From Punica granatum (Eukaryota > Streptophyta > Magnoliopsida > Myrtales > Lythraceae): 64,000 nucleotides of DNA. Under the pieces are notes generated by a model. It had not been told where the DNA came from and searched no databases. It saw only the letters and a program-made list of their open reading frames with translations. Below are positions 9,824 to 40,578 of the stretch, one piece after another (the first letter of the stretch is position 1; each line of letters starts with the position of its first letter). The position numbers were made by a program, and so were the translations under genes. The stretch covers positions 1,736,001 to 1,800,000 of the forward strand of contig NC_045132.1 of assembly GCF_007655135.1 (NCBI RefSeq), in the 5' to 3' direction.

Positions 9824-10633
9824 GAGTAAACTGGCAATTTCGTCCCTGACTTACGCAAATTACATCATCTGGGTTCCTGAAAAAATGTTAAATCGAATTC
9901 TTCCCTGGTCACATCGAAATCGTCCTTGGTCACATCGAATTCGTCCCTGGTAACATCAAGTTCGTCCCTCGTCACATTAAATTCGTCTCTGGTCACATCG
10001 AATTCGTCCCCGATCACATCAAGTTCGTCCCTAGGCACATCGAATTCGTTCCTGGTCACATCAATTTGGTCTTTCGTCACATCAGTTTGGTCCTTGGTAA
10101 TATCAAATCCATCCTACGTCCTTTGCCGTTATGATTCCGTGAGAGGCCCAGATTGATGAGTATAAAAAAGGTCCTTATGTTACGAACCAAAGATAAGAGG
10201 GAGTGACAAAAAAAAGGGAATAAATTGAATAGTTACATAGAAGGACAATATTGATGAATACGATGTTTTCCGTCCAGTGTTAACTATAGATATGACGGTG
10301 GGATGAATTTGATGTTATCAAAGACCAAACTGATGTGACGGATGACCGAATTGATGCGCCCATCGACGAATTCGATGTGCCCAGGGATGAACTTGATGTG
10401 ATTAGGGACGAACTTGATGTTACCAGGGACGAATTTGATGTGGCCAGAGATGAATTTGATGTGGTCAGGGACGAATTTGATGTGACGAGGGACGAACTTG
10501 ATGTTACCAGAGACGAATTCGATGTGACCAGGGATGACTTCAATGTGACCAAGGACAAATTCGATGTAACATTTATTTAGAGACCCAGATGATGCAATTT
10601 GCGTAAGTCAGGGACGAAATTACCTGTTTACTC
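9824..10633. mobile_element. Foldback element with 21-bp repeat arms
   Basis: The ends form an inverted repeat: left GAGTAAACTGGCAATTTCG and right (reverse complement) GAGTAAACAGGTAATTTCG, continuing through CCCTGACTTACGCAAATT. Inside each end lies an array of 21-bp units: about ten at 9908-10117 (type GTCACATCGAATTCGTCCCTG, with one base of variation per site) and about twelve in opposite orientation at 10311-10562. The unique centre is about 190 bp. Because 21 is a multiple of three, both arms stay open and mimic acidic repeat proteins, which I regard as an artefact. No clear target-site duplication was found, so the superfamily is unassigned. Confidence 0.75.
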
Positions 10634-21662: not shown

Positions 21663-22868
21663 ATGGGAAGAAGGAGAAGCCATTGCTGCCCAAAGGAGAG
21701 TACGAATGTGAACAGAGGGGTTTGGTCCTCTAAGGAAGATGAGATCCTCACCAACTATGTCAACCTCCATGGTGAAGGCAAATGGAGAACTGTTGCCCTA
21801 AATGCTGGTACAATTTATATATGCATATTCATGTATGTATACGTATGTATGTATGTGTAAATATATCATCATGCCTCTTCAAATAATGTACTCTTATGGG
21901 GTGGTATTGCTCTTGCGGTAAAATTAGGGTTGAACAGATGTGCAAAGAGCTGCAGGCTTCGATGGCTGAACTACCTAAAACCCGGCATCAAGAGGGGTAA
22001 CATCTCTGAGGACGAGGAGGAACTCATCATAAGGCTACATTGCCTTCTCGGGAACAGGTAATTTTATCAATTCCGTGAAATACTATGTTTATTCTAAGCT
22101 CATCTAAAAGAGTCGATGAGATGATGATGGACAAGATAAAGGTTTTACGAGAGTGATAATTTACTCGTTTGTATATATATAATTGGAAATGGTTCCGAGT
22201 GTGCGTTAATTCTTGCATCCGAAATCATGAAAAGGTGGGCACTGATAGCTGGGAGGCTTCCCGGGAGAACGGACAATGAAATAAAGAACTACTGGAACAC
22301 GATCCTCGTCAAGAAGTCGCACAAACATCCACGGACCGCACTTCGCCCGAAATCAGTACCACCAAACTCTTTGGAGGAACATTTTTCTCCCAACAATGAG
22401 GATGATGCCATGAACTTTGATAATAATCATAGTATCCTGAATGCCCGTCATGAGGCTTTAATTGGCCTTGCTGATCAAGCTGATGATGGTGAGAAGCAGA
22501 AGTATGGGCCAGGGTCGGGGCCAGGGCCAGGGCCATTCACATTCTCTCCTACCGTCGCCCCAGAAGGCACTGGCAATGATGACCTAGGCTTCATGATGGA
22601 TGAATCTTATGGCTCGGAATCACTGTCCGGGAATCTTAATGAAGTCGTGCCAGAGGACATCCTCAACTTGTCTCCTTCCTCTACTTCGCCCGGCAGTGGG
22701 TCTCTTTTCTCTGGAGATGATCAAGCGATGATGATCAACAAGTTTGAAAACGAGATCAATAATTGCAGCAATACTACTATAAGGGAGCCAACGCTTGATG
22801 TGGAGCTGAAGAAGTTGGCCTCTTTTCTTGATTTAGAAGATGAGTGGAGGGAACTACTAAAGATATGA
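21663..22868 (+). CDS. R2R3-MYB transcription factor (flavonoid/trichome type, bHLH-interacting)
   Basis: Three exons, 21663-21807, 21928-22057 and 22235-22868, joined at GT/AG sites, give a 302-residue nuclear DNA-binding protein. The 130-bp second exon and the intron phases are the standard plant R2R3-MYB pattern. R2 spans residues 18-68 and R3 about 70-119, with the regularly spaced tryptophans in place. Residues 80-99 fit the bHLH-interaction signature [DE]Lx2[RK]x3Lx6Lx3R exactly (E80, L81, R84, L88, L95, R99), known from MYBs that act with bHLH and WD40 partners in anthocyanin, proanthocyanidin or epidermal programmes. The start MGRRRSHCC matches the family N-terminus. The C-terminal part is acidic and ends in a leucine-rich [13 protein letters not shown] element suggestive of activation. 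One oddity is CAKSC in R2 where CGKSC is usual. A TT2/MYB5-like role is inference. Confidence 0.93.

Positions 22869-24027: not shown

Positions 24028-24065
<38 letters not shown>
24028..24065. repeat. 38-base poly(C) tract
   Basis: An uninterrupted run of 38 C, preceded by CTCCCTTCA and followed by AGTATAAAA. Such long G/C homopolymers are rare in plant nuclear DNA, can form i-motif or G-quadruplex structures, and are prone to replication and sequencing slippage, so the true length is uncertain. Confidence 0.9.
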
Positions 24066-24447: not shown

Positions 24448-24977
24448 TGATTAATTATTAAAAAATATAATTTTTTCACATTTTATAAGTTCTAGCATTA
24501 ACTTTTTTCTTGACCTAAAAATACACAAACTATCAAATTGATATCAATATTACTACAACGTCATCATTTTTTATCAGTGAAGCATCAACGGCAGTCACCG
24601 CCCCTCAATCCAGATCACTTGTGACGACATATGTCGCCGCCGACCAGTGGGGTGGTGGTCGTCGACGAGGCTCCCACCCCCCGACCCCTCTTCCTTCCAT
24701 TCTCGAAGTTACTTTTTTTTTTCTTTTTAAATTTGGGCAATAAGGGCCTCATCGGAGGCCACCACCGCCTCTATAAAGTTGCTGGGGACTACTGAGATTG
24801 TGAGTACCTCGATCAAGGATGTTGGCCAACAATTCCCTATTTAAATTAACGAAAAAAAGTTGGTGCGTGGTAATATTGATATTGAATTGATAGTTTGCGT
24901 ATTTTTAGATCAAGAAAAAAATTCATACTAGAATTGGTAAAATGTGAAAAAAAAATAATTTTTTTGGTAATTAACCC
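24448..24977. mobile_element. Mutator-like element with GC-rich cargo
   Basis: Perfect 9-bp duplications TTTAGCATA flank the element (24439-24447 and 24978-24986), the hallmark of Mutator-like transposons. Terminal inverted repeats are about 130 bp, with shared blocks TTTTTTCACATTTTA, CTTGA.CTAAAAATAC and CAAACTATCAA. The centre, about 24585-24690, is GC-rich (GCCGCCGACCAGTGGGGTGG) and unlike the AT-rich arms, as in Pack-MULEs that carry host gene pieces. I could not assign the cargo to a protein. Confidence 0.88.
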
Positions 24978-26617: not shown

Positions 26618-27805
26618 CACTTTGTCACGATACATTAAAAGGATTTAGTCTAGATAGTAGTTGGAATCTAAATATAGAAAAAGGAACTAAAATTTGTTTA
26701 AATACACTACAATTGTAAAAAGTGCTTTTTTTGGTCTACGAATTGTAAAAAGTGCTTTTTTTCTGGGTCTGCAAATTGTAAGAAGTGCTTTAGATTAATC
26801 AAAGGAGAGTACCATATGAATCAAAGTATGTCTAAAATACATAAAAAAATGTAAAATATAAATTGCAAGAAATGGTGAAATACTTTTATAGTTTCATACT
26901 TTGATAATATAACTAGGTAAATTTGCCCGCACGGTACTGTGGAATAAGACGGTCAATAATATAATAAGCACATGTACACTTGATAAATATACCTTTTAGT
27001 TTCAATATAATATACATTATTCTTACATATAAAAAATTTTATTGCTCATAAAATCTTTGAACTCGCAAAAAGTACGTAGATACTGACTATAAGAAGAAAG
27101 AAAATATTTCACGCTATTTGCTTTTATTTTGGTACCATGCTTAATTTTCAATTAGGTCAGGGGCATTGTGCAAAATTTTAAAAGTTAGGGGCTAAACCTA
27201 AAAACACCCCCCCCCCCCCATAGTTCCTCTCTCTCTCTCTCTCTATATATATATATTAGATATGTAATACATTCGAAAGCAAGACATTAAATTACAATAT
27301 AATGATCTTTATATCAAAATAGATGGAACCATCTAATTTTAAAGTTGCTTTAATTTGGAGCATATACATAAACATGGAGGAAAAGCAAATAATGAACTTA
27401 ACCAAATGATATGTTAAGATAAGTAAAAACAAAAAAAAAAGTAGAAGTTTGTATGAAAACTTAAAATTAGTGAGTAAATAGTTTCTATATGGAAGGGAGA
27501 TAGAAAGTAATGGAGATGAATGTGTTCGAATAGAAAGTGCAAAATCAAAAGCACCAAAATGAAAAAAGTTAAAAGATTATAAGTTATAGAAATTTAAAAA
27601 GTTGTAATGCCCCCCCCCCCCCCTAAAAAAAAAGAAGGAAAGAAAGGAGGCCGTGTGGCTTGATGAGATGAGGACGGACGAGGTTTAGTTGTTTAAATGT
27701 AATTTTGATGTAAAAAAAAGGGAGGAGGAAGGATCCTTATTGACCATCCCACTATATATTTAATGTATATGGCATATTCAAAAAACCACCAACTATGTGA
27801 ACCAT
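26618..27805. other. AT-rich spacer with poly(C) tracts left of the viral locus
   Basis: The spacer holds a possible Helitron-like 3' end on the minus strand at 26913-26942 (terminal CTAG beside GCCCGCACGGTACTGTGG), a C13 run at 27207-27219, a (CT)n(AT)n microsatellite at 27227-27256 and a C14 run at 27610-27623. A near-tandem AATTGTAAAAAGTGCTTTTT repeat lies at about 26710-26765. No gene is seen. Confidence 0.5.
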
Positions 27806-27908
27806 TTCCTCCAGAGATCTATACGTAGGGGATAATCATGGAATACAGGAAGAACATGGATCTGATATGCATAGACTGTCAAGATATATATGAGATCGAC
27901 ATGGAAGA

Positions 27909-27914
27909 TTTATT
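27909..27914 (-). terminator. Viral polyadenylation signal (component A copy)
   Basis: AATAAA on the minus strand, about 250 bases downstream of the TATA element. Caulimovirids place the poly(A) signal downstream of the transcription start so that genomic RNA is terminally redundant; this spacing fits. The equivalent in the other copy is at 34777-34782. Confidence 0.55.
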
Positions 27915-28165
27915 CAAACACTTAGCCCATGATGGGCTGAAGGGAGTACATGAGTTTGAAACAAACAAAAGAAAAAGACATTAAAATAAAAGGAAAGAGT
28001 CTGTAAGGACTCAATCCATGCTTACACTGGAACTTACACACAGAAAGGGGGTTGGAGGATCCGGGTTATGTGAGCCGGATGTTTACATATGGGAAGAGAT
28101 AAGAGAGGAAGAGAGAATTATGTGTTGCGGGTGTGTGTCCTCCTCGATGCTGGAGGAAGAGCACT

Positions 28166-28171
28166 CTTATA
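28166..28171 (-). promoter_or_regulatory. Viral TATA element (component A copy)
   Basis: On the minus strand the context is CACTGCCTATAAGAGTGC, resembling the TATA region of caulimovirid genomic promoters. Upstream in viral sense lie two perfect 20-bp repeats at 28317-28336 and 28411-28430. Transcription would start near 28135-28140. No functional data. Confidence 0.5.
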
Positions 28172-28316
28172 GGCAGTGGTGGATGCCTTGTCGCTGTGCA
28201 GCTTTACACTGTGCACTCACATGCGGGGTATTGTCGAGCTCAGTGGAAGAACTGTAGCTACAGTGCCTTTTTAATCGCAAAAGGTGACAGGAGGCTGCTT
28301 TATGTCGGGCACGCTC

Positions 28317-28430
28317 GCCGAAAGGTTTTTTGTCCGTTATGGTACCACTGTGAGTAGTGGTGGGACGCTTCCGGAGATTGCGCTGATTATGTCGTGGCAT
28401 AGCCTGTCGAGCCGAAAGGTTTTTTGTCCG
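28317..28430 (-). repeat. Paired 20-bp upstream repeats in the viral promoter
   Basis: GCCGAAAGGTTTTTTGTCCG occurs at 28317-28336 and 28411-28430, and again at 35184-35203 and 35278-35297 in the other copy of the common region. The position upstream of the TATA element suggests enhancer elements, but this is inference. Confidence 0.6.
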
Positions 28431-28488
28431 GTAATGATCCACGTGTCTGAAACAGTGGGCGGACGTTCTCGGTTGCTGGGGCTAGCAA

Positions 28489-29379
28489 TCATTCTGATGA
28501 GAAATCACTGTCGCCTTGATCCCTGTGGGACTCTGAAGCAGACGAAGCAGTGTTCAATTCTTTGAGCTCCAGGAGGACCTGGCTGAGTCGCCCTATGTAA
28601 TCCTCATCAGTTTTTGCTGCTGAGAGGAAGGACGAGGCGCGGGCTTTGACCTGGAGAAAGCTTTGGTGGTCCACTTGTGCTTTGTCTGAGACAAGAGCAT
28701 TTTTACGGAACCAACTGAGAACAAATTGGGAGTCAAGATGGTCTACCTTCAGCTTAACCCACCATTTGCATTTGAAGATCCTGGCCAGTGTCTGCAGGCC
28801 TGTCTGTTGATCAGGCTTGTATCCGAAAGACCAATTATGAACCCATGATAATCCAAAGATCTGGTAGAACTGGAGAAGCACGGGAAAAATGGTTTGGTTC
28901 CCTTGAGGTTTAAATCGGGAAGCGAACATGATGTAGCCTTCATGGATTATGGGAGGCAGTATGTCTGGAATGGGACCCCAGATAGACCACCAGTGGGCGA
29001 ACCAAAAGGGAAATATGGCTATATCTTTAGAATGGAAAAAGATCAGCCAAGTGTGTCTGAACTCATGGTTTTGGTACAAAAATGCATTGTACCATGCTTG
29101 CTGGTAATCCCAGTAGGAATACATGGCATTATGGGGGAGATCGGACGAGAACCGGGCTTGGAATTTATGGATTTGGTATGGTTTTCCCTCATTCCATTCT
29201 CTCGGGTGGATCACTCTGAGTATTTTGGCTGTAGAGTGGGATATGGTGTTTGAGGAGCCAGGGACGAGGTGGTGTTTGAACTCAACTGAACCTGTATCAC
29301 TCAAAATTTTCTCATAATATTCCCGGGTTTTTGAAATGTCAAATGGCCGGAAATACCAGTTTTCGGGAAACAATTTCAT
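28489..29379 (-). CDS. Component A ORF3: aromatic-rich viral protein, function unknown
   Basis: 296 residues, starting MKLFPENWYFRPFDISKTRE. Its ATG overlaps the stop of ORF2 in an ATGA. Residues about 80-215 are strikingly rich in Trp, Phe, Tyr and His (for example SYWDYQQAWYNAFLYQN and FWFAHWWSIW), and the C-terminal 60 residues are Ser/Glu-rich and probably flexible. I see no catalytic motif. The last gene of some caulimovirids encodes a translational transactivator, but I cannot show homology. The frame is complete with no stop, unusual for an old insertion. It is followed at once by the common region. Function unassigned. Confidence 0.8.
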   Translation of the reverse strand: MKLFPENWYFRPFDISKTREYYEKILSDTGSVEFKHHLVPGSSNTISHSTAKILRVIHPREWNEGKPYQIHKFQARFSSDLPHNAMYSYWDYQQAWYNAFLYQNHEFRHTWLIFFHSKDIAIFPFWFAHWWSIWGPIPDILPPIIHEGYIMFASRFKPQGNQTIFPVLLQFYQIFGLSWVHNWSFGYKPDQQTGLQTLARIFKCKWWVKLKVDHLDSQFVLSWFRKNALVSDKAQVDHQSFLQVKARASSFLSAAKTDEDYIGRLSQVLLELKELNTASSASESHRDQGDSDFSSE

Positions 29380-29927
29380 GCAGCGAAGAAGGGGTTTTCA
29401 TGGTAAAAACCTTCTTCCATTATCAAAACAGTTTGAAATAATGATTTTGGAAACCATGGTGCTGTTTTTGAAGAGCTGGTTTCCTTATCGGAAAATGTGG
29501 TGAGACTTTTTTCTGCTCTTTTGGCGATTTGCCTAGAGCTCTCTCCCTTGCCAGTCTCCAGCTGAGGAGGAGATATTCCAGATAGCACTTGTGCTATTTC
29601 TGGTTTATCTTTTAAAACAGTAATCCATTGCTGGACTACAACATCATTATCGAGGGGAGAGGAACTCTGTTTTGCAAGAGTTTGTTTCTCCTTTTTGGGT
29701 TTAGGAATTTTACCTGGCAGAGTCTGCATGCAGCTCTGCTTATCGATCTCCTGTTGGAGAGTCTGTCGATAGGTTTTTATCTGGCTATCAACAGTGATCT
29801 GCCCAATGGATGGTTGGCCAGGGGCCTTATGGTGCGAGGATTGCTCCTCATTTTTTATCGACTGGCTGGGAGCCAGCTGTTTTGAGGCCGCAGCCTCTTT
29901 TTTCGAGGAACGAGTCCTCATGCTCAT
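29376..29927 (-). CDS. Component A ORF2: basic, disordered viral protein
   Basis: 183 residues, starting MSMRTRSSKKEAAASKQLAP. The start overlaps the ORF1 stop (ATGA) and the end overlaps the ORF3 start (ATGA), implying coupled or re-initiating translation from one polycistronic RNA as in many caulimovirids. It is rich in Lys, Gln, Ser and Pro with low hydrophobicity, has a probable helix near residues 90-120 and a Phe/Trp patch near the C-terminus. Small basic proteins in this family can be virion-associated or nucleic-acid binding, but I see no diagnostic motif. No counterpart is evident in component B. Confidence 0.75.
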   Translation of the reverse strand: MSMRTRSSKKEAAASKQLAPSQSIKNEEQSSHHKAPGQPSIGQITVDSQIKTYRQTLQQEIDKQSCMQTLPGKIPKPKKEKQTLAKQSSSPLDNDVVVQQWITVLKDKPEIAQVLSGISPPQLETGKGESSRQIAKRAEKSLTTFSDKETSSSKTAPWFPKSLFQTVLIMEEGFYHENPFFAA

Positions 29928-32900
29928 GTTGGTACCTGCAGGAATTCTCTTGTCAGGAAGTCAGGGAGACTGTTAGTCTCACCTTTTATGAATTCAATGT
30001 CAAAATCAAATACACTCAAGATAGCTTGCCAACGGGCAAAAATCTGTTTTGATGCAATGTTTTGAACATCTTTTTGAAGAACCTCTTTTGCAGATTTGCA
30101 ATCAATCCGAAGTAAAAACCTTTGGTTTAAAAGATCAGATTGAAATTTAGAAATGCAAAGGACCACAGAAAGAATTTCTTTTTTTATTGTTGAGTAATTC
30201 TTCTGGGTAGGGTTCCAATGTTTTGATGTGAACTGAACAACCTGTTCATGTCCATTTTTGGATTGTTTCAAGATTCCTCCGTATCCTTCTTCAGAGGCGT
30301 CCGTTTCAACAATCTTTTTTGCGGAAGGATCTGCCAAGTGCAAGCAAGGCAGAGTTTTGATTTGAAGCTTGATTTGCTTCACAATTTTGGTTTGTTCATC
30401 CGTCCATGGTGGAGGAGAATTCTTTAACCTGTTATGGAGGGGTTTGCAAAGCTTACTTAGGCCAGGGAAGAAATCTACAACGTAGTTTAGACTTCCTAAG
30501 AACCTTTGTAGCTGTTTTTTATCATGGATTTGATCAGGGAACCTATCAGCAAACTGGATTGACCTGTTAATGGGGATTATGGTGCCCCTGCTGATGTTGT
30601 GCCCTAGGAATCGGATTTTGGTTTGGAAGAGGCAGACTTTAGTCGGGGACACAGTCAAACCATTTATCGAGGTGACTCTCATAAAATGCTTCAGATGTCT
30701 GAAATGAGAATCAGGGGTTTTGGAAAATATGAGAACATCATCGATGTATACAATTATGAAATCGGAGTATTCACCAAAGATGTCATTCATGATTTTCTGA
30801 AATTCAGATGGGGCATTTTTGAGCCCAAATGGCATTACATTCCATTCGTACTGGCCAAACGGAACTGTGAATGCAGTTTTGTATTTGTCCTTTTCGGCGA
30901 TTTGAATTTGCCAAAAACCTGACTTCATGTCGAATTTTGAAAATATTTTTGAATCATGAAGTCTTTGGAGCAAATCTTTTTTGTTAGGTATCGGGTACCT
31001 AATCCACCTTAAGGCTTGGTTCAAGGGCTTGTAATTGATTACTAACCTGGGGACTCCTCTTTCAAGCTCAGCGTTTTTGTTCACGTAGAAGGCTGAACAA
31101 CTCCAGGGAGACTTACTAGGCCTAATCAATTTTTTGTTCAAGAGGTCTTGGATTTCTACCTTGCAGTGTTTTTCCAACTCTTGATTCATCTGAATGGGTC
31201 TAGCTTTTGTTGGGATATTTTTCTCATCAAAGTCCTTTTCATAAGGTAAGTCGATGACATGTTGCTTCCTATCCCAGAAAGCGTTTGGGGTTTCTCCACA
31301 AACTGACTCCTGAATCAGCCTGTCGAGATTATCGATTTTTTGTTTCCAATCTGGTTTTTGGAGCAGATTTTCCACATTATGGTGAGAGATCTCATCTTTT
31401 ACCCAACCTATTTGCCTCTCAGCTGCCTGTATCATGTCCAGATTTCTGGTTACAGGTTTTGTTATGAAAGGGAAAAGGGTTTTGCTTCCTAAGTACACCG
31501 TTTTTATGCCTGAATTGGTGAGTAGGAAGGGTTTAATGAGCTGAATGAATGGGGTTCCTAGTATGACTTCATTTTTTAAGTCTTGGACAACTAGGAAACC
31601 AGTTTTGTATGTTGAATCTTCATTTTTAACTTCTGCTTCTGCAATTTTATGGGTGATTTTCAATTTATCGTTGCTGGCAGAACGTAAAGATTCATGGGTC
31701 AATTCGCAGTATTTTTTAGGGATTATTCCCTTCCTCACACAATTGGCGTCTGCACCTGTATCCAACAGGGCAGTTACTTCCACTTGGAAGTCGTTCACCT
31801 TGATTGTAGGTTTTAGGAGGTATTTCTGATGGGTGAATTCCTGGCTTTTACACTCAGGTTTGGGTTCAGCACCGTCAATGGTCTGAACCAGCTTTTTATC
31901 ATTTTTCAGAGTTATTACTTCTTTATGGAGCTCATTGAGTTTTTGGCGAAGTTTTAACTCTGCTTGAAGTCTTTCTTTTTCCCGGTTTTCATGCTCTTGG
32001 GCGCGGGTATTCCTGATCATCATGTTGAGTAACCTAAGGTTTTTGGTTTGCTCAGGTTCTTTTGGCTCAACATATTTTGGAGGGGGTTTTGAGGAGACTA
32101 CGGTTTTATTAAAAGGTAGTTTCCAAGTTATGGTATTTTCAGTGAATTTGAGAGCCTTTTCTTCCATGAAGAATTGGTAAAACCATTCCCAGAAAAGGAT
32201 GTTTTTTCTATTTTCATTCATCCAGTAGATCCAACTGTTTTGCATTATGGTCTCTACGTATTTTTTTGTAAAGACATCATACAACCAGTTTTTTCTTTTT
32301 TCATTTTCTTTGGAGCAGAAGTCATTCCTAAGGATGGCTGAGGCTATTGAAAATGATTTCTCAATAACATAGATCTCAGGATTAGGATTGATTCTGGTTG
32401 CATCGGTTATGGATGAGAATGTGGGTGAAGGTGGAGCTGACTCAGTTTCATCTGTGATGGGGGCAGAGTATACTGGTCTAGGGATATCGGTGGCGACACT
32501 ACTTATTCCTCTAAGGTTGGCAGTCCTAGGAGGGATATCAGTAGCTGTTTGGAAAGTGTTAGCCGATGGGGCAACACTGAATGATCTCCTTCTAAGCTCA
32601 GGGCTTCTAAAGGAAGAATTTATCGAGGGTGTTGAGGTTGACTGTATGTCGACTGATCTCCTATGGTGAAAGCTTATGGAAACTCTCCCATCTTGGAACT
32701 GGCTCACTCGACTAAGTTCCTCATTTTGAATTTTTTCAGGGGCAACTGCGTCTTCTAAGACCCATTCTTCAGGAAGAGTTACCTCATTCCACCTAATTGG
32801 TCTAGGGACTACAGTGTTTGACCTGGCAATATCAGTTTGGAAAAGGAGGGTTTCTCCTTTGGGGCTATGGTTGAAGGCTTTGGTTGCAAACGCTGAGACC

Positions 32901-33505
32901 ATCGTTTTGTAATGGACTCTGTACACAAGGGCTAAAGGGATGGAGCCTAAAGCAATCTTGTAATTGTGCGTTTTGATTTGCAGGGTCAAGCCATGAGTTA
33001 TGTTTTGGTCTTTGAGGGACATGGTGAAATTTGGGAAACAGTTGAAATGGACTGGCCCGTCACACAGACTAGTCTCTACCGTCCCAAGGATGGATTCATG
33101 GTAATTCAGAAGCCTAGCATCCCTAAGCACTAGGAGCACTGAGGTATCTAAACCTTCTCTGGTCTGGGGTTTTATGCCCACTTGGACAAGCCCTATATGG
33201 ATGAAATTGTATTTATCGTTGTGTTTTTTCAGGGACTCTTGGTTCAAGAGTTTTATGGTTTGTGAAGAGTTTTTTAGGGGAATGTCCCGCTCTTCAGTTG
33301 TTATGGTGTAATCGGTTTTTGAGAAAATTTGTTGGAATTTTGAGTTTTTATAAATCTGTTTTGAAGCGATTCTTGGGATCTCCCAATCATCGATAGATTT
33401 ATCAAAACATTCCAAATTGACCTCTTCTCTGTTGAGAACAGAATCATTATCGAAATTATTTTCAGAAGGACATGTACTCGAAGAACTTGCTTTAAACCAA
33501 TCCAT
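29924..33505 (-). CDS. Component A ORF1: movement protein-protease-RT-RNase H polyprotein
   Basis: An uninterrupted 1193-codon frame. Domains in order: 30K-type movement protein, residues about 100-205; a variable linker; a spacer domain (380-463, with NILFWEWF) that also occurs in component B; a coiled-coil-like Glu/Lys/Leu stretch (498-540); retropepsin-type aspartic protease with DTGAD at 582-586 and EVILGTPFIQL near 646-656; reverse transcriptase about 750-990, with FDMKSGFWQI (Asp859) and YIDD at 920-923; and RNase H about 1063-1190 with the first catalytic Asp at 1069. No capsid core or CCHC knuckle is present, unlike usual caulimovirid polyproteins. The start codon lies exactly at the end of the shared leader. 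All key catalytic motifs that I can check are present. Its last codon overlaps ORF2. Confidence 0.93.
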   Translation of the reverse strand: MDWFKASSSSTCPSENNFDNDSVLNREEVNLECFDKSIDDWEIPRIASKQIYKNSKFQQIFSKTDYTITTEERDIPLKNSSQTIKLLNQESLKKHNDKYNFIHIGLVQVGIKPQTREGLDTSVLLVLRDARLLNYHESILGTVETSLCDGPVHFNCFPNFTMSLKDQNITHGLTLQIKTHNYKIALGSIPLALVYRVHYKTMVSAFATKAFNHSPKGETLLFQTDIARSNTVVPRPIRWNEVTLPEEWVLEDAVAPEKIQNEELSRVSQFQDGRVSISFHHRRSVDIQSTSTPSINSSFRSPELRRRSFSVAPSANTFQTATDIPPRTANLRGISSVATDIPRPVYSAPITDETESAPPSPTFSSITDATRINPNPEIYVIEKSFSIASAILRNDFCSKENEKRKNWLYDVFTKKYVETIMQNSWIYWMNENRKNILFWEWFYQFFMEEKALKFTENTITWKLPFNKTVVSSKPPPKYVEPKEPEQTKNLRLLNMMIRNTRAQEHENREKERLQAELKLRQKLNELHKEVITLKNDKKLVQTIDGAEPKPECKSQEFTHQKYLLKPTIKVNDFQVEVTALLDTGADANCVRKGIIPKKYCELTHESLRSASNDKLKITHKIAEAEVKNEDSTYKTGFLVVQDLKNEVILGTPFIQLIKPFLLTNSGIKTVYLGSKTLFPFITKPVTRNLDMIQAAERQIGWVKDEISHHNVENLLQKPDWKQKIDNLDRLIQESVCGETPNAFWDRKQHVIDLPYEKDFDEKNIPTKARPIQMNQELEKHCKVEIQDLLNKKLIRPSKSPWSCSAFYVNKNAELERGVPRLVINYKPLNQALRWIRYPIPNKKDLLQRLHDSKIFSKFDMKSGFWQIQIAEKDKYKTAFTVPFGQYEWNVMPFGLKNAPSEFQKIMNDIFGEYSDFIIVYIDDVLIFSKTPDSHFRHLKHFMRVTSINGLTVSPTKVCLFQTKIRFLGHNISRGTIIPINRSIQFADRFPDQIHDKKQLQRFLGSLNYVVDFFPGLSKLCKPLHNRLKNSPPPWTDEQTKIVKQIKLQIKTLPCLHLADPSAKKIVETDASEEGYGGILKQSKNGHEQVVQFTSKHWNPTQKNYSTIKKEILSVVLCISKFQSDLLNQRFLLRIDCKSAKEVLQKDVQNIASKQIFARWQAILSVFDFDIEFIKGETNSLPDFLTREFLQVPT

Positions 33506-34361
33506 GTTTTAAAAACAATAAACCTTCCAGTCTATCAAACATTTATCAAGACTTTCTATACTTTTGCATATCAGTTCCCTATCCTTAAGGTATTCCATAC
33601 CTATCCTAGACGAAAGCTCTACAGATTTAATAGAACCATTAGCCTAGAAAGTAGTTCAAAGATGCTATACCGTAACAGATACTCCTACCCAGCTTCTCTC
33701 AAGATCAAGATCGGATCTAAGACGTACCTTACTGGCAGAAATCCCACCTCACACAGTGTTTCCCTGCAGCATACCTTAAACATACCTTGCCCAACTGCTG
33801 TACCTGGTTTTAACAATAATAGTAGACAGACAAACTCAGCATGACTCTCTATAGATCTATCTCCTATCCCAACTGCTGTACCTAGACGAACGATAATGCA
33901 AAGGATAACTCTACTCCAGTCGATAACCTCCATCTACTTAGACGGTGCTCGTAACACTACCGGGACTCTTTCCAATTTTTACCCTGAAACTGCCCTAACC
34001 GTCGGGACTTACAAACGGGTACACCTTAGGACTTCCCCCCGGGTTACTACAAACGGTGAATGTGTAGGGTCCATTAGAGCGACTGGATGGACATTAGAGC
34101 CTATTGCATTACTTCTTATGCTAGCATCAGTTCATTGTGATGTTGGATCTAGACTTCTACAGAGTCCTGCGCTATGGCTGCCTAATTACTATGTTTACCA
34201 GCTTCAGTTCATTGTATAGGATATGCAAGAATACACTATTGGGAGAACGCTACATGAGTTTCTACCAGCCATGAAGGCGGTCCTAGATGATATGATCTAC
34301 GAGATCTACATGGATCTAAGTACCTTAAACGGAATATACATCCTATCCCCACCTACTCTTG
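33506..34361 (-). promoter_or_regulatory. Component A leader between primer site and ORF1
   Basis: From primer site to start codon (34373-33506) this is 868 bases, the same length as in component B (40444-39577), and I count only two substitutions by eye, at about 33626 and 33839. Long structured leaders with short frames are normal in this family and support ribosome shunting or re-initiation. Short plus-strand frames (33662-33844, 33896-34219) and their duplicates in the other copy are antisense by-products. Confidence 0.75.
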
Positions 34362-34647
34362 GCTTTGATACCATTTCCTCCAGAGATCTATACGTAGGGG
34401 ATAATCATGGAATACAGGAAGAACATGGATCTGATATGGACCGCCTTCATGGCTGGTAGAAACTCATGTAGCGTTCTCCCAATAGTGTATTCTTGCATAT
34501 CCTATACAATGAACTGAAGCTGGTAAACATAGTAATTAGGCAGCCATAGCGCAAGACTCTGTAGAAGTCTAGATCCAACATCACAATGAACTGATGCTAG
34601 CATAAGAAGTAATGCAATAGGCTCTAATGTCCATCCAGTCGCTCTAA
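34074..34647. repeat. 210-bp inverted repeat of viral leader sequence
   Basis: Arm 1 is 34074-34283 and arm 2 is 34438-34647 in opposite orientation. They match at 209 of 210 positions by eye (one C/T change near 34171). The 154-bp spacer holds the component A primer site and pre-primer sequence. Arm 1 is the normal leader of component A; arm 2 is an extra inverted copy placed between the units. RNA started at the viral promoter near 35035 would read arm 2 then arm 1 and could fold into a long hairpin. Confidence 0.92.
34362..34373 (-). promoter_or_regulatory. tRNA-Met primer-binding site, component A
   Basis: The minus strand reads TGGTATCAAAGC, one change from TGGTATCAGAGC, the complement of the initiator tRNA-Met 3' end used to prime minus-strand synthesis in Caulimoviridae. 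It marks the conventional origin of the viral map. Confidence 0.85.
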
Positions 34648-34660
34648 GGCGGTAGTCTAT
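34648..34660. other. Filler at the component B/A junction
   Basis: Thirteen bases (GGCGGTAGTCTAT) lie between the inverted leader arm and the extra primer site and belong to neither in order. AGTCTATGC is the reverse complement of pre-primer sequence nearby, suggesting template slippage during end joining. Confidence 0.6.
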
Positions 34661-34672
34661 GCTTTGATACCA
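34661..34672 (-). promoter_or_regulatory. tRNA-Met primer-binding site, extra copy at the junction
   Basis: TGGTATCAAAGC on the minus strand, preceded in viral sense by the full pre-primer sequence. It closes component B's circle: B measures about 5772 bases from the site at 40433-40444 to here. Confidence 0.85.
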
Positions 34673-35349
34673 TTTCCTCCAGAGATCTATACGTAGGGGA
34701 TAATCATGGAATACAGGAAGAACATGGATCTGATATGCATAGACTGTCAAGATAAATATGAGATCGACATGGAAGATTTATTCAAACACTTAGCCCATGA
34801 TGGGCTGAAGGGAGTACATGAGTTTGAAACAAACAAAAGAAAAGACATTAAAATAAAAGGAAAGAGTCTGTAAGGACTCAATCCATGCTTACACTGGAAC
34901 TTACACACAGAAAGGGGGTTGGAGGATCCGGGTTATGGGAGCCGGATGTTTACATATGGGAAGAGATAAGAGAGGAAGAGAGAATTATGTGTTGCGGGTG
35001 TGTGTCCTCCTCGATGCTGGAGGAAGAGCACTCTTATAGGCAGTGGTGGATGCCTTGTCGCTGTGCAGCTTTACACTGTGCACTCACATGCGGGGTATTG
35101 TCGAGCTCAGTGGAAGAACTGTAGCTACAGTGCCTTTTTAATCGCAAAAGGTGACAGGAGGCTGCTTTATGTCGGGCACGCTCGCCGAAAGGTTTTTTGT
35201 CCGTTATGGTACCACTGTGAGTAGTGGTGGGACGCTTCCGGAGATTGCGCTGATTATGTCGGGGCATAGCCTGTCGAGCCGAAAGGTTTTTTGTCCGGTA
35301 ATGATCCACGTGTCTGAAACAGTGGGCGGATGCTCTCGGTTGCTGGTGG
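34673..35349 (-). promoter_or_regulatory. Component B 3' non-coding half of the common region
   Basis: Nearly identical to 27806-28488. It begins right after the stop of component B ORF3. It contains the TATA element (35033-35038), the paired 20-bp repeats (35184-35203, 35278-35297) and the AATAAA signal (34777-34782), all on the minus strand. In this array it lies directly upstream of the inverted leader piece and component A, so it could drive RNA through both. Confidence 0.8.
35033..35038 (-). promoter_or_regulatory. Viral TATA element upstream of the hairpin and component A
   Basis: Same CCTATAAGAG context as 28166-28171. It is the only complete viral promoter copy located upstream of coding sequence in this array, because component B at the right end lacks its own promoter. 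Confidence 0.5.
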
Positions 35350-36939
35350 CTAGATGCCGTATTGGCGGTGATCGCGCTGAGCCTCTAGCAGGAACTCCTC
35401 TTCGAATTTGTCAATCAGGAAAGCATGTCTTGTGCTGAACCCTGGTTGAGCTGGTAGGTCGACGAGAGAGATGTGCAGGAAGACTCTTTGGCAGTTACCT
35501 GAGAACTGGAGAACATGCTCTGGGTATTTACGCCAGTGCCATTCGTTTACCTGAACCCAGGCTCGCCAGTCGCTGATCTGGTTTGTTATCGGTCCATCTG
35601 CTGGCCAGAACTTTACCTCCGGGGTGAGAATGCTCCTCGAACTTACCGGAGAGATAAAAATGTAATGGATAGCAGGTTGAACTTTTATGGGGGAGATCCA
35701 CTCCGGTGGAGAGGATTCTATGCTGATGAAGAGGCTGGACGATCGATGCAGGGACCTTTTGATTAATCCCCAAGCATTATCTCCGAAAAGAGACTGGTAC
35801 TCCGGTCGATGTTCATCCTCTGGTCTCAGAATTATGGATTTGAGAACTCCGTATTTCAGGAGATCACAAAAATCAAAATGGTGATTATAAAATTTATCTT
35901 TTAATGGAAAAACATAAAAACTTATCCTGGGGATCGAGAATTCCAGGATATGCCTGCAACCGTTCATGAGTAGGATGTCAGTTCTTTCAAAATCATCATC
36001 TTCCTCGTGTTGGTCACAGGGTTTTGGAAAATCATTTTGAAAATGGTTTTTTCTTTCCCAATTCCAAAACCATCCGTCAATTCCTTTTTGTGAACATGCA
36101 CAGAAATGAAGGAGTTTTTTGAAAAAGGAAATGGTGGTTGTAGTAAAATCCTGGAGACTTGTCTCAGAAATTTTTAAGACGATATCTTCAGGAAGTTTTG
36201 AAAGGAACAGGATTTCTCCTGCTCGGGGGAAGACGCCACTGAGAGTTACTTCAATGGGTTTTTCCCAAAACAGTTTTTCAGTCTGGTTTCCGATGAGGGG
36301 AACCACAGACTGATTTATCGATGGAGTTGATATGGACTCCAAATCCTGCTTTAATTTTTTATTTTCATTATCAAGAGCGTCTTTTTCCCTGAGGCAGGAC
36401 TCAGAAAACTCCAAGACTTCTATTCTTTCCGCACAGAGGCTTTCTATTTCTTTTTTGAAGCCTTCATTTTCTTTTTCGAGAATACCTCTCCTTTTTTCGC
36501 TCTTTTTCAATTTTTTCAATAGAGCATGATTTTCTCTTTGCATTTCTGCAAAGTGCTCTGTGAAATTATCGAACTCTACTAACCTGTCTTGGAGGAAAGC
36601 TTGAGTCTGAGCTTTTTGGAGGGATAGCTCTTGTTGCAGCGAATCGATTTTCAGGCAAAGTTCCTGCTGCAAGGACGCTTTGCTGTTGCTTTGTTCCTCC
36701 ATGTGGAGAACCAATGCATCCATGGATTCCTCACCCTTTTGAGGATTCTTTACGGAAGACCATAAATCATCCAAGATGAGTTGTTGCCTGTGATCAGGCC
36801 GCCAAGCCGTGAGGCTGGACTTTATGCAGAATCTCTTTTTTGGGGGCAGATCCTGATGTTTATGGGTTTTGTTCCTGGAGGAGGAACCTTTATCGACCTG
36901 GTCAAACCAGGGGAGATCCATGTTCCTGTAATGTGACAT
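35350..36939 (-). CDS. Component B ORF3: long coiled-coil viral protein, function unknown
   Basis: 529 residues, starting MSHYRNMDLPWFDQVDKGSS, uninterrupted. Residues about 75-205 form a strong heptad-type coiled coil (Leu/Glu/Lys-rich, for example LQQELCLKIDSLQQELSL). A folded-looking domain follows at 225-529 with many aromatic residues (DGWFWNWERKNHF, DWRAWVQVNEWHWRKYPEH). No known catalytic motif is visible. Coiled-coil proteins in this virus family can be virion- or inclusion-associated, which is only a hint. There is no counterpart in component A. It lies 10 bases after ORF2 and ends directly at the common region. Confidence 0.8.
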   Translation of the reverse strand: MSHYRNMDLPWFDQVDKGSSSRNKTHKHQDLPPKKRFCIKSSLTAWRPDHRQQLILDDLWSSVKNPQKGEESMDALVLHMEEQSNSKASLQQELCLKIDSLQQELSLQKAQTQAFLQDRLVEFDNFTEHFAEMQRENHALLKKLKKSEKRRGILEKENEGFKKEIESLCAERIEVLEFSESCLREKDALDNENKKLKQDLESISTPSINQSVVPLIGNQTEKLFWEKPIEVTLSGVFPRAGEILFLSKLPEDIVLKISETSLQDFTTTTISFFKKLLHFCACSQKGIDGWFWNWERKNHFQNDFPKPCDQHEEDDDFERTDILLMNGCRHILEFSIPRISFYVFPLKDKFYNHHFDFCDLLKYGVLKSIILRPEDEHRPEYQSLFGDNAWGLIKRSLHRSSSLFISIESSPPEWISPIKVQPAIHYIFISPVSSRSILTPEVKFWPADGPITNQISDWRAWVQVNEWHWRKYPEHVLQFSGNCQRVFLHISLVDLPAQPGFSTRHAFLIDKFEEEFLLEAQRDHRQYGI

Positions 36940-36949
36940 GAAACAATGG

Positions 36950-37339
36950 TTATGGCAGATTTATGTTTAAATGGACTCTTACAGGAGCCTGTAAGGCCAG
37001 GTGGCCTAAGAATAGCTCATAGTCCTCCCGGGTTTTTAAAGTGGAGTTGATGTGCTGAAAACAAGGTTTTGTATTGCATCGAGGGATTTCTTTGCAATGC
37101 TTGTTAAAATAGGCACACAACACATGGGATACAGGATGATCGATGAGGGCACAGATTTTGTAGATGTATGTAGTGAATATACGATCCATAGAGTCTGTTT
37201 CCCCGTCCTGTATGTCCTTTTGGATTTTCTCAAGACTTTCGTCTTGCCACAGTTCTAACAGCCAATGGTGTAACCACTCTTGAGCAGACTCCACAGCCAT
37301 TTCCTGCGCAAAATACATCAGTCTATCTTGTAAATGCAT
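36950..37339 (-). CDS. Component B ORF2: small viral protein, function unknown
   Basis: 129 residues, starting MHLQDRLMYFAQEMAVESAQ. The start lies inside the end of the protease frame (22-base overlap) in another frame, and the stop is 10 bases before ORF3. It is mostly helical-looking, with Trp/Leu/His clusters at residues 22-31 and several Cys and His in the second half (HPVSHVLCAYFNKHCKEIPR) that do not form a standard zinc knuckle. I do not recognise the family. The compact arrangement with its neighbours argues that it is a real viral gene. Confidence 0.65.
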   Translation of the reverse strand: MHLQDRLMYFAQEMAVESAQEWLHHWLLELWQDESLEKIQKDIQDGETDSMDRIFTTYIYKICALIDHPVSHVLCAYFNKHCKEIPRCNTKPCFQHINSTLKTREDYELFLGHLALQAPVRVHLNINLP

Positions 37340-39576
37340 TTGTCAGAGACAAAACAGAATTTTATTTTGTTTCCAAGCCTGTGCGTTTCGATGCCAGATG
37401 CTGTGACAAGAAACGGTTTTAAAAGCTGGATGAATGGGGTTCCTAGGATGACCTCATGATTAAGGCTTTTCACTAGGAGGAATGACGTTTTGTATCGGAC
37501 TCTATTTTGTTCAACTTCACCTTCGCTCAACTTATGCTGGATGTCGAGCTTAGTACCACTAACCGAAGAAAGTGATTCAGTTGTTTTTTCATAGAATCTG
37601 ACAGGAATGAGTTGTTCACGAATGCAGTTTTCGTCTGCACCTGTGTCAAACAGAGCAGTTGCATCAATAAACAAATTATGGTTTATGACAAGCTTGATTT
37701 TGATCAGCCACCTGTTAGGAGAAGGCTCCCCTATCATGGTTAAGGCTTTCTGCTGGTCATTTTTTTGTTGGTCCAGGGCCAGAGTGTCCTCTGGGTTTTG
37801 ATCCTAGGTCATGAGGACTTGTCTAGAGCTTCCTGCTTCTGCAAAGAACTCTTCGAGCCGTCCAATTATGGTGGAGTGCTGCTGTTGTTCAAATTTGAGA
37901 CAAGCAATATCACTCCTGAGATTATCGATTTCTTTTTGGGCATCAAACGAGGTTATGTGAGCTCGTTTTTTGCCATGTCTTTTCAGGATTTCCGACAAGT
38001 TATAATTAGGGGTTTTGGTCTCGGTTTCGAGAGTGCCCTGATTTAACTTCTCAAGGTATTGTGTTCTTAACAAAGGGTTTTGGATTTCTCCTGCTATTTC
38101 AAGCAGGAATTCTTGGTCCTTAGTTAAGACGTTTATCGATTACAGAAGCTCTAGGTTTTTGTCTTTGAGGTGAGAGGGGTCTCCTACGAAGTGTTGGGAG
38201 ATGGCAAAGACTAGAGTTGCTACGGCGTCAGGGATGTCTTCGTTGTTAGCATCCCAGATGATCTCACCAGATTCATCTGTCTTGACGCTGGTCAGGATTT
38301 CATTTTGTTGGAAGGGAGAAAGGTAGTTGTCCCACCATCCCTTCAATTGGCCTGTGAACCCTGCTATGAGCATGTGCGCTATGGCTGGGTCCGACAATCG
38401 GGTCTGGGTCTTGTAAGCATTTGATACCATCGTCATTTGCTGTAAGACGCTGAGTATGTTATATTCAGACTGCCCGTCTATGTTCCACTCATAGATGGCA
38501 TTGGCACTATACCTATTCTGGACAATGTTTGGTTTTTCTTCCAAAACTAGGTCTGGTGCACTTATGGTAGTGTAGTAGGGTTTTTGGGGTTCCTTCCACA
38601 CTAATGCTCCTAAATCTCCAGAATTATGGATGGCGTTGACGACATTCGAGCCCTGGGACTCTTGTGTCTTGATTTTTGTTGCTCTTAATGGGGTTCCTGG
38701 CTCTTTTTCTGAAAGAGGTGTTTCCGGGATGACCATTTTTTGCAAGTTTATGGATGGGGAATTTTCTTGGAGATTTATGGATTTTAATCTTCTATCTATT
38801 TCCTGCCTAAACTCTTGTTTCCTAGAGATAGGAATTTCATGAGGTTTAAAGGGAGGTTTTTTGAGAGACTCTATGGGTACAGGTTTCAATTGGTTCGACT
38901 GACTAGAGGTCCCTACCTGGTTGACAACAGGCTTGGTGACTTCTTGTTCTATCCTATCCAATTGGGAACCTATGGTGTGGAGACACTGGTTTGTGAAATT
39001 ATTTTGTTCAAAGATGTTTTTTATGTCTTTGGGTTCCAGTGAATTGTCCACTTTCATTTTGAAGGGAGAGGCCTTGACCTCTGCTTTTTGATGGGTTATT
39101 TGGATGGTTCCTAAAGGCGGATGTGTGGACTCAACCGGGTCTGCATTCGCAAGATCCCACTTTATGGTTTTCTGAGTTACACATACCATTCTTTTAGGTG
39201 CGAAATGATTTTCAAACCAATCCCAAAATAGGATATTGTTGGAGTTTTTTAGCACGAATGCTGTCCATTCTACCCTGATATGAGATTTGGTATATTCTTC
39301 GGAGAATGTCTCGTGGAGCCATCTCCTTTTATGGTCATTATGGGGTGCTAGGAAATCACTCCTAAGCTTATCGTAATCTATCTCAAATTTTTTGACTACT
39401 GTGTCTACCCTAGGGACAACTGACACAGAAAGTGCTATTTGAGATCTACATTCAGCTAATTTTTGGTTTATTCTATCCTGAAAAGAATCTCTATTTCTTT
39501 TGTTGATAGAATAATTATCGTTTATGTGATGAGAACCTACGCGTGCAAGTAGAGGAAAATTTTTAAAAAGACCCAT
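37318..39576 (-). pseudogene. Component B ORF1: capsid-like plus protease frame, broken by two stops
   Basis: One reading frame of 753 codons interrupted in phase by TAA at 38140-38142 and TAG at 37804-37806, giving segments of 478, 111 and 161 codons (the last with its first Met at 37737). Segment 1 has a spacer domain (residues 60-142, NILFWDWF) homologous to the one in component A, a disordered middle, and a caulimovirid capsid core at about 355-470 (HMLIAGFTGQLKGWWDNYLS). Segment 2 is helical. Segment 3 carries an aspartic protease with DTGAD and EVILGTPFIQL. There is no CCHC zinc knuckle, normally C-terminal to the capsid core, so an internal deletion near 38140 is likely as well. There is no movement protein, RT or RNase H. 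Confidence 0.85.
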
Positions 39577-40432
39577 GTTTTAAAAACAATAAACCTTCCA
39601 GTCTATCAAACATTTATCAAGACTTTCTATACTTTTGCATATCAGTTCCCTATCCTTAAGGTATTCCATACCTATCCTAGACGAAAGCTCTACAGATCTA
39701 ATAGAACCATTAGCCTAGAAAGTAGTTCAAAGATGCTATACCGTAACAGATACTCCTACCCAGCTTCTCTCAAGATCAAGATCGGATCTAAGACGTACCT
39801 TACTGGCAGAAATCCCACCTCACACAGTGTTTCCCTGCAGCATACCTTAAACATACCTTGCCCAACTGCTGTACCTGGTTTTAACAATAATAGTAGACAG
39901 ACAAACTCATCATGACTCTCTATAGATCTATCTCCTATCCCAACTGCTGTACCTAGACGAACGATAATGCAAAGGATAACTCTACTCCAGTCGATAACCT
40001 CCATCTACTTAGACGGTGCTCGTAACACTACCGGGACTCTTTCCAATTTTTACCCTGAAACTGCCCTAACCGTCGGGACTTACAAACGGGTACACCTTAG
40101 GACTTCCCCCCGGGTTACTACAAACGGTGAATGTGTAGGGTCCATTAGAGCGACTGGATGGACATTAGAGCCTATTGCATTACTTCTTATGCTAGCATCA
40201 GTTCATTGTGATGTTGGATCTAGACTTCTACAGAGTCCTGCGCTATGGCTGCCTAATTACTATGTTTACCAGCTTCAGTTCATTGTATAGGATATGCAAG
40301 AATACACTATTGGGAGAACGCTACATGAGTTTCTACCAGCCATGAAGGCGGTCCTAGATGATATGATCTACGAGATCTACATGGATCTAAGTACCTTAAA
40401 CGGAATATACATCCTATCCCCACCTACTCTTG
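39577..40432 (-). promoter_or_regulatory. Component B leader between primer site and ORF1
   Basis: Near-identical to the component A leader (33506-34361) right up to the start codon, after which the two diverge completely. Both read CATGTTTTAAAAACAATAAA on the plus strand across the boundary. Confidence 0.8.
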
Positions 40433-40444
40433 GCTTTGATACCA
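40433..40444 (-). promoter_or_regulatory. tRNA-Met primer-binding site, component B
   Basis: TGGTATCAAAGC on the minus strand. About 80 bases of pre-primer viral sequence continue to 40523 before similarity is lost; the viral promoter is not present at this end. Confidence 0.85.
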
Positions 40445-40523
40445 TTTCCTCCAGAGATCTATACGTAGGGGATAATCATGGAATACAGAAGAACATGGAT
40501 CTGATATGCATAGACTGTCAAGA

Positions 40524-40578
40524 GTAGGTTTGACATGAGATTTGATATGAGATCTTCCATGTCGATCTCATATATATA
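40524..40578 (+). repeat. Right viral edge with an inverted viral scrap
   Basis: After the pre-primer sequence ends at about 40523, a short filler is followed by 40552-40577, which is the reverse complement of viral sequence found at about 27884-27910. The host flank then begins in a TATATATATA tract. This is a rearranged end-joining junction. Confidence 0.7.

What the first reader, a model, noticed from the sequence alone, without database searches (positions are those of the whole stretch)
27806..40578. Endogenous pararetrovirus captured as two distinct genome components (A and B) in one array
Seen: two adjacent units with different genes but the same non-coding region, each bounded by a tRNA-Met primer site. 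A (about 6.57 kb) has movement protein, protease, RT and RNase H but no capsid; B (about 5.77 kb) has capsid and protease but no movement protein, RT or RNase H. Each lacks what the other supplies. Known: Caulimoviridae normally have one circular genome, and a bipartite organisation has been proposed only for some florendoviruses. Inference: this locus is a near-complete fossil of a bipartite reverse-transcribing virus with both segments side by side.
Basis: partly seen in the sequence, partly recalled or inferred. Interest (0 to 1): 0.95.

Follow-up and report, generated by a model that had tools for sequence, protein, structure and literature searches.

The report
Two-part pararetrovirus fossil in pomegranate
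Pomegranate chromosomes carry many copies of an ancient plant virus whose genes were divided between two DNA molecules sharing one control region; divided viruses of this type were known from grape and grasses, but here the genes are shared out differently.

Summary
The two units are real. A (27801-34373, minus strand) has MP, protease, RT, RNase H and two further ORFs, and no coat protein. B (34673-40444) has protease but no MP, RT or RNase H. Their leaders are 99.8% and their tails 99.1% identical. One point is wrong: this B copy has lost 705 nt holding the coat domain and zinc knuckle. Ten of ten other fetched B copies spanning that stretch keep it.

Genome-wide, A and B recur at 103 clusters (lower bounds): 23 A only, 46 B only, 34 both. 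None of the 94 best coat rows has a found RT row just downstream. Protease trees separate A from B. Common-region trees mix them (AU p = 3.6e-54; 2.5e-72, one leader per locus). Both units show purifying selection. Citrus and other plants carry predicted proteins joining MP to coat, so a monopartite ancestor is likely.

Best reading: a two-component caulimovirid dependent on trans-complementation. Geering 2014 and Chen 2017 described such pairs, so the kind is known. New here: the host, MP on A and absent from B, two ORFs private to B. Florendovirus placement could not be tested.

The parts
27801..28488 (-). A: 3' non-coding tail of the common region; viral sequence ends at 27801 inside the primer site
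   Evidence: 99.1% identical to the B tail
28489..29379 (-). A: ORF A3, 296 aa; five Citrus predicted proteins carry a 29-36% similar stretch behind the coat domain
   Evidence: dN/dS 0.04-0.27 in 13 rows
29376..29927 (-). A: ORF A2, 183 aa; 35% similar stretch in one Citrus protein
   Evidence: dN/dS 0.10-0.56 in 16 rows, one undefined
29924..33505 (-). A: ORF A1, 1193 aa polyprotein: MP 32756-33505, middle part with weak DUF7588 31826-32755, protease 31406-31810, RT 30536-31225, RNase H 29927-30505
   Evidence: given to database searches in pieces
33506..34373 (-). A leader with primer-binding site at 34362-34373 and many short upstream ORFs
34374..34672 (.). rearranged 299-nt piece: start of a tail, a 210-nt inverted leader fragment (34438-34647) and a second primer site (34661-34672)
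34673..35349 (-). B: 3' non-coding tail of the common region
35350..36939 (-). B: ORF B4, 529 aa; 11 database hits, 10 of them Punica; no similarity to A2, A3 or RT detected
   Evidence: dN/dS 0.17-0.22 in 7 rows
36950..37339 (-). B: ORF B3, 129 aa, unknown
   Evidence: dN/dS 0.09-0.36 in 10 rows
37318..37737 (-). B: aspartic protease with DTG motif
   Evidence: (RVP 1.6e-9), (46% to the A protease over 146 columns)
37738..38139 (-). B: linker of the same polyprotein; an in-frame stop inside it in this copy
38140..38142 (-). B: junction of a 705-nt deletion that removes the coat domain and zinc knuckle in this copy and makes a stop
   Evidence: no coat row lies at this locus
38140..39576 (-). 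B: ORF B1, 478 aa, DUF7588 and DUF7746; the part before the coat domain
39577..40444 (-). B leader with primer-binding site at 40433-40444
40445..40577 (.). right end: about 80 nt of tail start, short unmatched stretch, 26-nt inverted tail fragment, then an (AT)n run

Best explanation
This is an integrated A-B array of a two-component plant pararetrovirus (Caulimoviridae) in Punica granatum. Component A supplied movement protein, reverse transcriptase and RNase H. Component B supplied the coat protein and two further proteins. Each kept a protease, presumably to process its own polyprotein. Both RNAs were probably primed by tRNA-Met at the same site, copied by A's RT and packed in B's coat. 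Recombination or template switching between the two kept the control region alike while the genes diverged. Shown: the layouts, their recurrence, shared control regions, diverged sister proteases, purifying selection on most genes. Inferred: trans-complementation, encapsidation, function of B3 and B4, and capture of the DNA during break repair in TA-rich host DNA.
For: Layouts: where enough of a unit was fetched, A and B keep the same gene order; truncated and rearranged copies also occur. Of 28 leader-to-ORF junctions, 15 lead to MP and 13 straight into B's N-terminal part at the leader end, leaving no room for an MP; one of the 13 is an A/B chimera. Genome-wide: 103 clusters, 23 A only, 46 B only, 34 both; 0 of the best 94 coat rows have a found RT row within 3.5 kb downstream. 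Control region: A/B labels interleave in a 25-leader tree (7 changes, 6 forced by well-supported branches, AU p 3.6e-54), also with 15 hand-chosen leaders, one per locus (p 2.5e-72). Protease: A and B each one clade, 100/100; together they are sister to 6 Citrus and Eutrema rows, 100/99. Selection: dN/dS 0.05-0.17 MP, 0.06-0.26 RT, 0-0.07 DUF7746, 0.07-0.35 B protease, 0.17-0.22 B4; coat 0.14-0.31 in 9 near-full rows, 0.08-0.55 in all 12. In other plants MP and coat parts occur in one predicted protein.
Against: No particle, transcript or episomal circle was examined. A helper virus cannot be excluded: among the weaker coat rows (30-50% identity; some are only frame-shifted ends of good copies) at least one, L036, is a different, older caulimovirid whose layout is unknown. 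Genome-wide counts are lower bounds: 74 of 3882 candidates were scored, 89 of 267, 150 of 267, so an RT near a coat row could have been missed. Genome-wide MP, B4 and A3 searches never ran. No strict TATA box or purine tract of 11 or more was found in the control region. B1's N-terminal part (dN/dS 0.29-0.43), A2 (0.10-0.56) and A's middle part (0.21-0.97) evolve faster.
Confidence: 0.8

Rival explanations
1. A and B were both dependent (satellite-like) elements that used an unseen complete helper caulimovirid. The shared control region let the helper's proteins act on both.
For: A divergent older caulimovirid exists in the same genome (L036). Chen 2017 (PMC5491270; abstract, sections 6, 8, 9 and passages read) describes a commensal pair with an autonomous partner in rice.
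Against: Together A and B already hold MP, coat, protease, RT and RNase H. No complete unit of this lineage was found (0 of 94 coat rows; the RT list is a lower bound). Both components show purifying selection on those genes, which a helper-supported element would not need.
Confidence: 0.13
2. Simple deletion derivatives of one complete virus made at this locus after integration.
For: A and B are roughly complementary subsets of the gene order seen in Citrus predicted proteins. This B copy does carry a local 705-nt deletion.
Against: The same layouts recur at many loci. The A and B proteases are 46-53% identical although the control regions are about 99% identical or more. B3 and B4 have no counterpart detected in A.
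Confidence: 0.02
3. Two initially separate viruses that came to share a control region by recombination, instead of one virus that split.
For: B3 and B4 have no counterpart detected in A. Protease divergence is large, about 1.2 nucleotide changes per site between the clades.
Against: A and B proteases are sisters to the exclusion of 6 Citrus and Eutrema rows, 100/99. Few outgroups were available; two of the six fill under half of the columns, one is long-branched, and no grape or grass bipartite component was included.
Confidence: 0.15
4. Assembly chimera.
For: Repetitive, near-identical arrays are prone to misassembly.
Against: 34 of 103 clusters on several chromosomes hold both components. 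A-only and B-only loci also occur. The two control regions here differ at a few positions.
Confidence: 0.02

Closest known systems
Bipartite florendoviruses VvinBV and VvinDV (grape), OsatBV (rice) and SbicV (sorghum), components A and B; Geering et al. 2014, PMC4241990 (sections 6, 12 part 1 of 2, 24 and passages read)
   Same: Two components of 5.5-6.9 kb, near-identical intergenic region, A lacks coat, B lacks RT, compound A+B insertions, many copies, frequent TA repeats at insertion sites.
   Different: There, component B carries MP, coat and protease and ends in a stretch homologous to ORF2 of A. Here B carries no MP, and B3/B4 show no detected similarity to A2/A3.
ePVCVL and ePVCVL2 of grasses; Chen et al. 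2017, PMC5491270 (abstract, sections 6, 8, 9 and passages read)
   Same: Complementary non-autonomous pair, IGR 99.3% identical in rice, proteases dissimilar, IGR trees mixing the partners, an unknown domain where RT is missing.
   Different: In rice MP is on both components (95.3% identical); in sorghum and switchgrass MP is on the coat component only. In pomegranate MP is on the polymerase component only.
Predicted caulimovirid polyproteins of Citrus sinensis, Vitis, Cephalotus, Gossypium and others
   Same: Same domains: MP, DUF7588, DUF7746, coat domain, zinc knuckle, protease; A2/A3-like stretches in some Citrus proteins.
   Different: MP and coat parts lie in one protein, as expected of an undivided genome.

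Membership tests
Caulimoviridae | 30K-type MP, aspartic protease, RT, RNase H, tRNA-Met primer site, no integrase | tested here: met
   no integrase match in the Pfam scan of the ORFs (B's linker not scanned)
Caulimoviridae | coat protein with zinc knuckle | tested here: met
   met by other B copies: coat-domain and zinc-knuckle probes match in 10 of 10 spanning copies; Punica protein P0034 has a coat domain (5.1e-6) and a sub-cutoff zinc-knuckle match (0.0079) with the motif in its letters. Not met by the window copy
Florendovirus | RT places inside the florendovirus clade | not testable with these tools
Florendovirus | ORF2, 45-58 kDa, downstream in another frame | tested here: inconclusive
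   A2 and A3 lie downstream and overlap, 479 aa together. A3's own search found one Punica protein; similar stretches were seen in Citrus proteins fetched by B1, but Geering 2014 (section 6) notes a citrus petuvirus-like element with a florendovirus-like layout
Bipartite caulimovirid (Geering 2014; Chen 2017) | two components, complementary essential genes, near-identical intergenic region | tested here: met
   the coat gene is broken in the window copy
Bipartite caulimovirid (Geering 2014; Chen 2017) | component B carries MP | tested here: not met
   0 of 13 B-type leader junctions lead into MP; a genome-wide MP search never ran

The most novel reading that the evidence does not exclude
A pararetrovirus whose essential genes were fully divided: movement and replication on A, coat plus two private genes on B. 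The assignment of MP is the reverse of that in sorghum and switchgrass. The pair was kept long enough for its proteases to diverge by about 1.2 changes per site while the control region stayed common, possibly from an origin independent of the grape and grass ones (untested).
Probability: 0.6. Interest if true: 0.75.

Novelty: new variant of a known kind. Interest (0 to 1): 0.6.

Why it matters
Divided genomes are very rare among reverse-transcribing viruses and have been inferred only from fossils. A further lineage in a host of another plant order, with MP on the opposite component and private genes on B, helps tell which features of a divided pararetrovirus are necessary (shared control region, a protease on each part) and which are free to vary. 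With about a hundred clusters found, pomegranate is a good place to test concerted evolution of the control region.

Tried and rejected
Monopartite unit in the same genome: five B1-to-RT row pairs lay close on the same strand. One (C4, L029) is a B fragment joined to an A unit through control-region pieces. The other four belong to two loci on C3. The one mapped (C3:14.07 Mb) is an A/B chimera, B's N-terminal part in front of A's middle part; the other (C3:14.13 Mb) shows the same pattern of rows but was not fetched.

Homology of B3/B4 to A2, A3 or RT: none detected (BLAST; hhalign for B4, with a shallow profile).

Spliced-RNA origin of the 705-nt deletion: junction flanks do not show GT-AG.

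Relatives in viral contigs: none. Structure of B4: never ran. Solved structures for B1: none. Rfam at gathering scores: none.

Papers: the sugar beet paper cited for bipartite elements (Schmidt 2021, PMC8389469) is not held, so its layout is unknown to me. Pomegranate searches (1, 0 and 2 papers) listed none that by title or abstract deals with these elements in pomegranate; the listed papers were not opened. CAULIFINDER (PMC9719215), the 2023 review (PMC10377300), PMC5766536 and PMC9794742 were seen in passages only.
Full report
WHAT IS THERE. The window is G000:C6:1736001-1800000 of a 320-Mb plant genome. On the minus strand lie A (27801-34373) and B (34673-40444). A1 (1193 aa) holds MP (1.6e-23), RT (3.1e-35) and RNase H. 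Its protease is a sub-cutoff Pfam match (0.0042), supported by a DTG motif and by 53% identity over 116 columns to B's. A2 (183 aa) and A3 (296 aa) follow. B holds B1 (478 aa, DUF7588 and DUF7746), a protease (1.6e-9), B3 (129 aa) and B4 (529 aa).

COMMON REGION. The two 868-nt leaders differ at 2 positions; the tails are 99.1% identical over 675 nt, with 5 mismatches and one gap. Seven mismatches in about 1540 nt set a rough upper limit of 0.3 million years on this insertion, if the rate was 7e-9 per site per year (a recalled rate; inference). Differences already present at capture would make it younger; later gene conversion could make it older. The left viral end lies inside the primer site. 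The right end carries a small inverted fragment and then an (AT)n run. Between A and B a 299-nt rearranged piece holds a 210-nt inverted leader fragment.

THE COAT GENE. No zinc knuckle occurs in any frame of 27.5-41 kb. Relatives order the domains MP, DUF7588, DUF7746, coat domain, with a zinc knuckle and protease behind in those that reach so far; Punica protein P0034 carries DUF7746, a coat domain and a sub-cutoff zinc-knuckle match. In the window copy DUF7746 runs straight into the linker: a gap of 3 nt against 690-708 nt in 10 of 10 other fetched B copies that span the stretch. The missing piece is 705 nt, and its junction makes a stop. So the component had a coat gene, but this copy lost its core. 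No coat row lies at this locus.

GENOME-WIDE. RT gave 88 rows (74 of 3882 candidates scored) and B1 92 rows (89 of 267 scored). With these alone there were 97 clusters: 29 A only, 40 B only, 28 both. Adding the best 94 of 150 coat rows (56 lower rows dropped) gives 103 clusters: 23, 46 and 34. None of the 94 coat rows has one of the 88 RT rows within 3.5 kb downstream on its strand. In 28 leader-to-ORF junctions of fetched loci, 15 lead to MP and 13 to B's N-terminal part, one of the latter a chimera with A. Truncated and rearranged copies are common, for example an inverted end of B4 in L033.

CO-EVOLUTION. In a tree of 25 leaders (13 A, 12 B; one leader without an assigned ORF dropped) the labels interleave and one clade is rejected (AU p 3.6e-54). 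I repeated this with 15 leaders chosen by hand, one per locus: p 2.5e-72. Clades with 95-100% bootstrap support hold A and B leaders from different loci. In contrast 28 protease rows fall into one A (17) and one B (11) clade, 100/100. With 6 Citrus and Eutrema rows added, A and B are sisters, 100/99 (two of these rows are short, one is long-branched, and no grape or grass bipartite component was available). This is what a divided genome with a homogenised control region predicts.

SELECTION. Pairwise dN/dS against the window copy (my own Nei-Gojobori script; codons with stops skipped): MP 0.05-0.17 (14 rows), A protease 0.04-0.21 (17), RT 0.06-0.26 (17), RNase H 0-0.42 (15, one undefined), A3 0.04-0.27 (13), DUF7746 0-0.07 (13), B linker 0.13-0.31 (10), B protease 0.07-0.35 (10), B3 0.09-0.36 (10), B4 0.17-0.22 (7). 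Faster parts: B1's N-terminal part 0.29-0.43 (13), A2 0.10-0.56 (16, one undefined), A's middle 0.21-0.97 (11). The window copy lacks the coat core, so coat was measured against another copy: 0.14-0.31 in 9 near-full rows; three partial rows gave 0.08, 0.13 and 0.55. Some difference in each pair arose after integration, so these values overstate the viral dN/dS. Genes of both components were therefore in use while the lineages diverged.

ANCESTRY. Of 133 proteins held (two of them the window's own), 61 join an A-type stretch (MP, A2, A3 or RT) with a B-type stretch (DUF7746, coat or linker). The script printed 59 of the 61; none printed is from Punica, of which 15 named rows are held. Five Citrus proteins carry an A3-like stretch (29-36%) and one an A2-like stretch (35%) behind the coat domain. 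A3's own database search had found only one Punica protein. Gene models can be truncated or fused, so this is supporting evidence only. B4 has 11 database hits, 10 of them Punica and one an unnamed fragment (only the 7999 candidates sharing most words were scored).

COMPARISON WITH WHAT IS KNOWN. Geering 2014 described bipartite florendoviruses in grape, rice and sorghum, with compound A+B loci in grape and rice. Chen 2017 showed concerted evolution of the intergenic region in the grass pairs. In those accounts component B carries MP; in rice both do, and in sorghum and switchgrass only B does. In pomegranate MP is on A only. This is a new variant of a known kind. I could not read the sugar beet report, so priority of this layout is not claimed beyond the searches, of which I opened only the papers named in this report.

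OPEN. RT placement, a possible helper (weaker coat rows at 30-50% identity, some only frame-shifted ends of good copies; L036 is a different caulimovirid with coat and a protease trace but no RT found in 4.5 kb), the roles of B3, B4, A2 and A3, and whether anything is still expressed.

Noticed in passing
window 9824-10633: 297-nt inverted repeats (81%) built of 21-nt tandem units, 216 nt apart; looks like a foldback or Mutator-type DNA transposon.
   Followed up: no
window 24460-24963: 97-nt inverted repeats, 85% complementary, 310 nt apart; MITE-like.
   Followed up: no
window 24028-24065: Run of 38 C.
   Followed up: no
window 22227-22868: 213-aa ORF beginning with the end of a Myb DNA-binding domain (5.3e-8), probably an exon of a host gene.
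   Followed up: no
L024-L025 (G000:C3 around 14.07 Mb): Chimera with B's N-terminal part in front of A's middle part, protease and RT: recombination between components outside the control region.
   Followed up: partly
L036 (G000:C8:12416501-12421000): Fragment of another, older caulimovirid; its highest-identity match among the held proteins shown is a Vitis protein (52%).
   Followed up: partly
window 34374-34672: Rearranged piece with a 210-nt inverted leader fragment between two primer sites; gaps of about 80-230 nt beside the leader at some other loci might be alike.
   Followed up: partly
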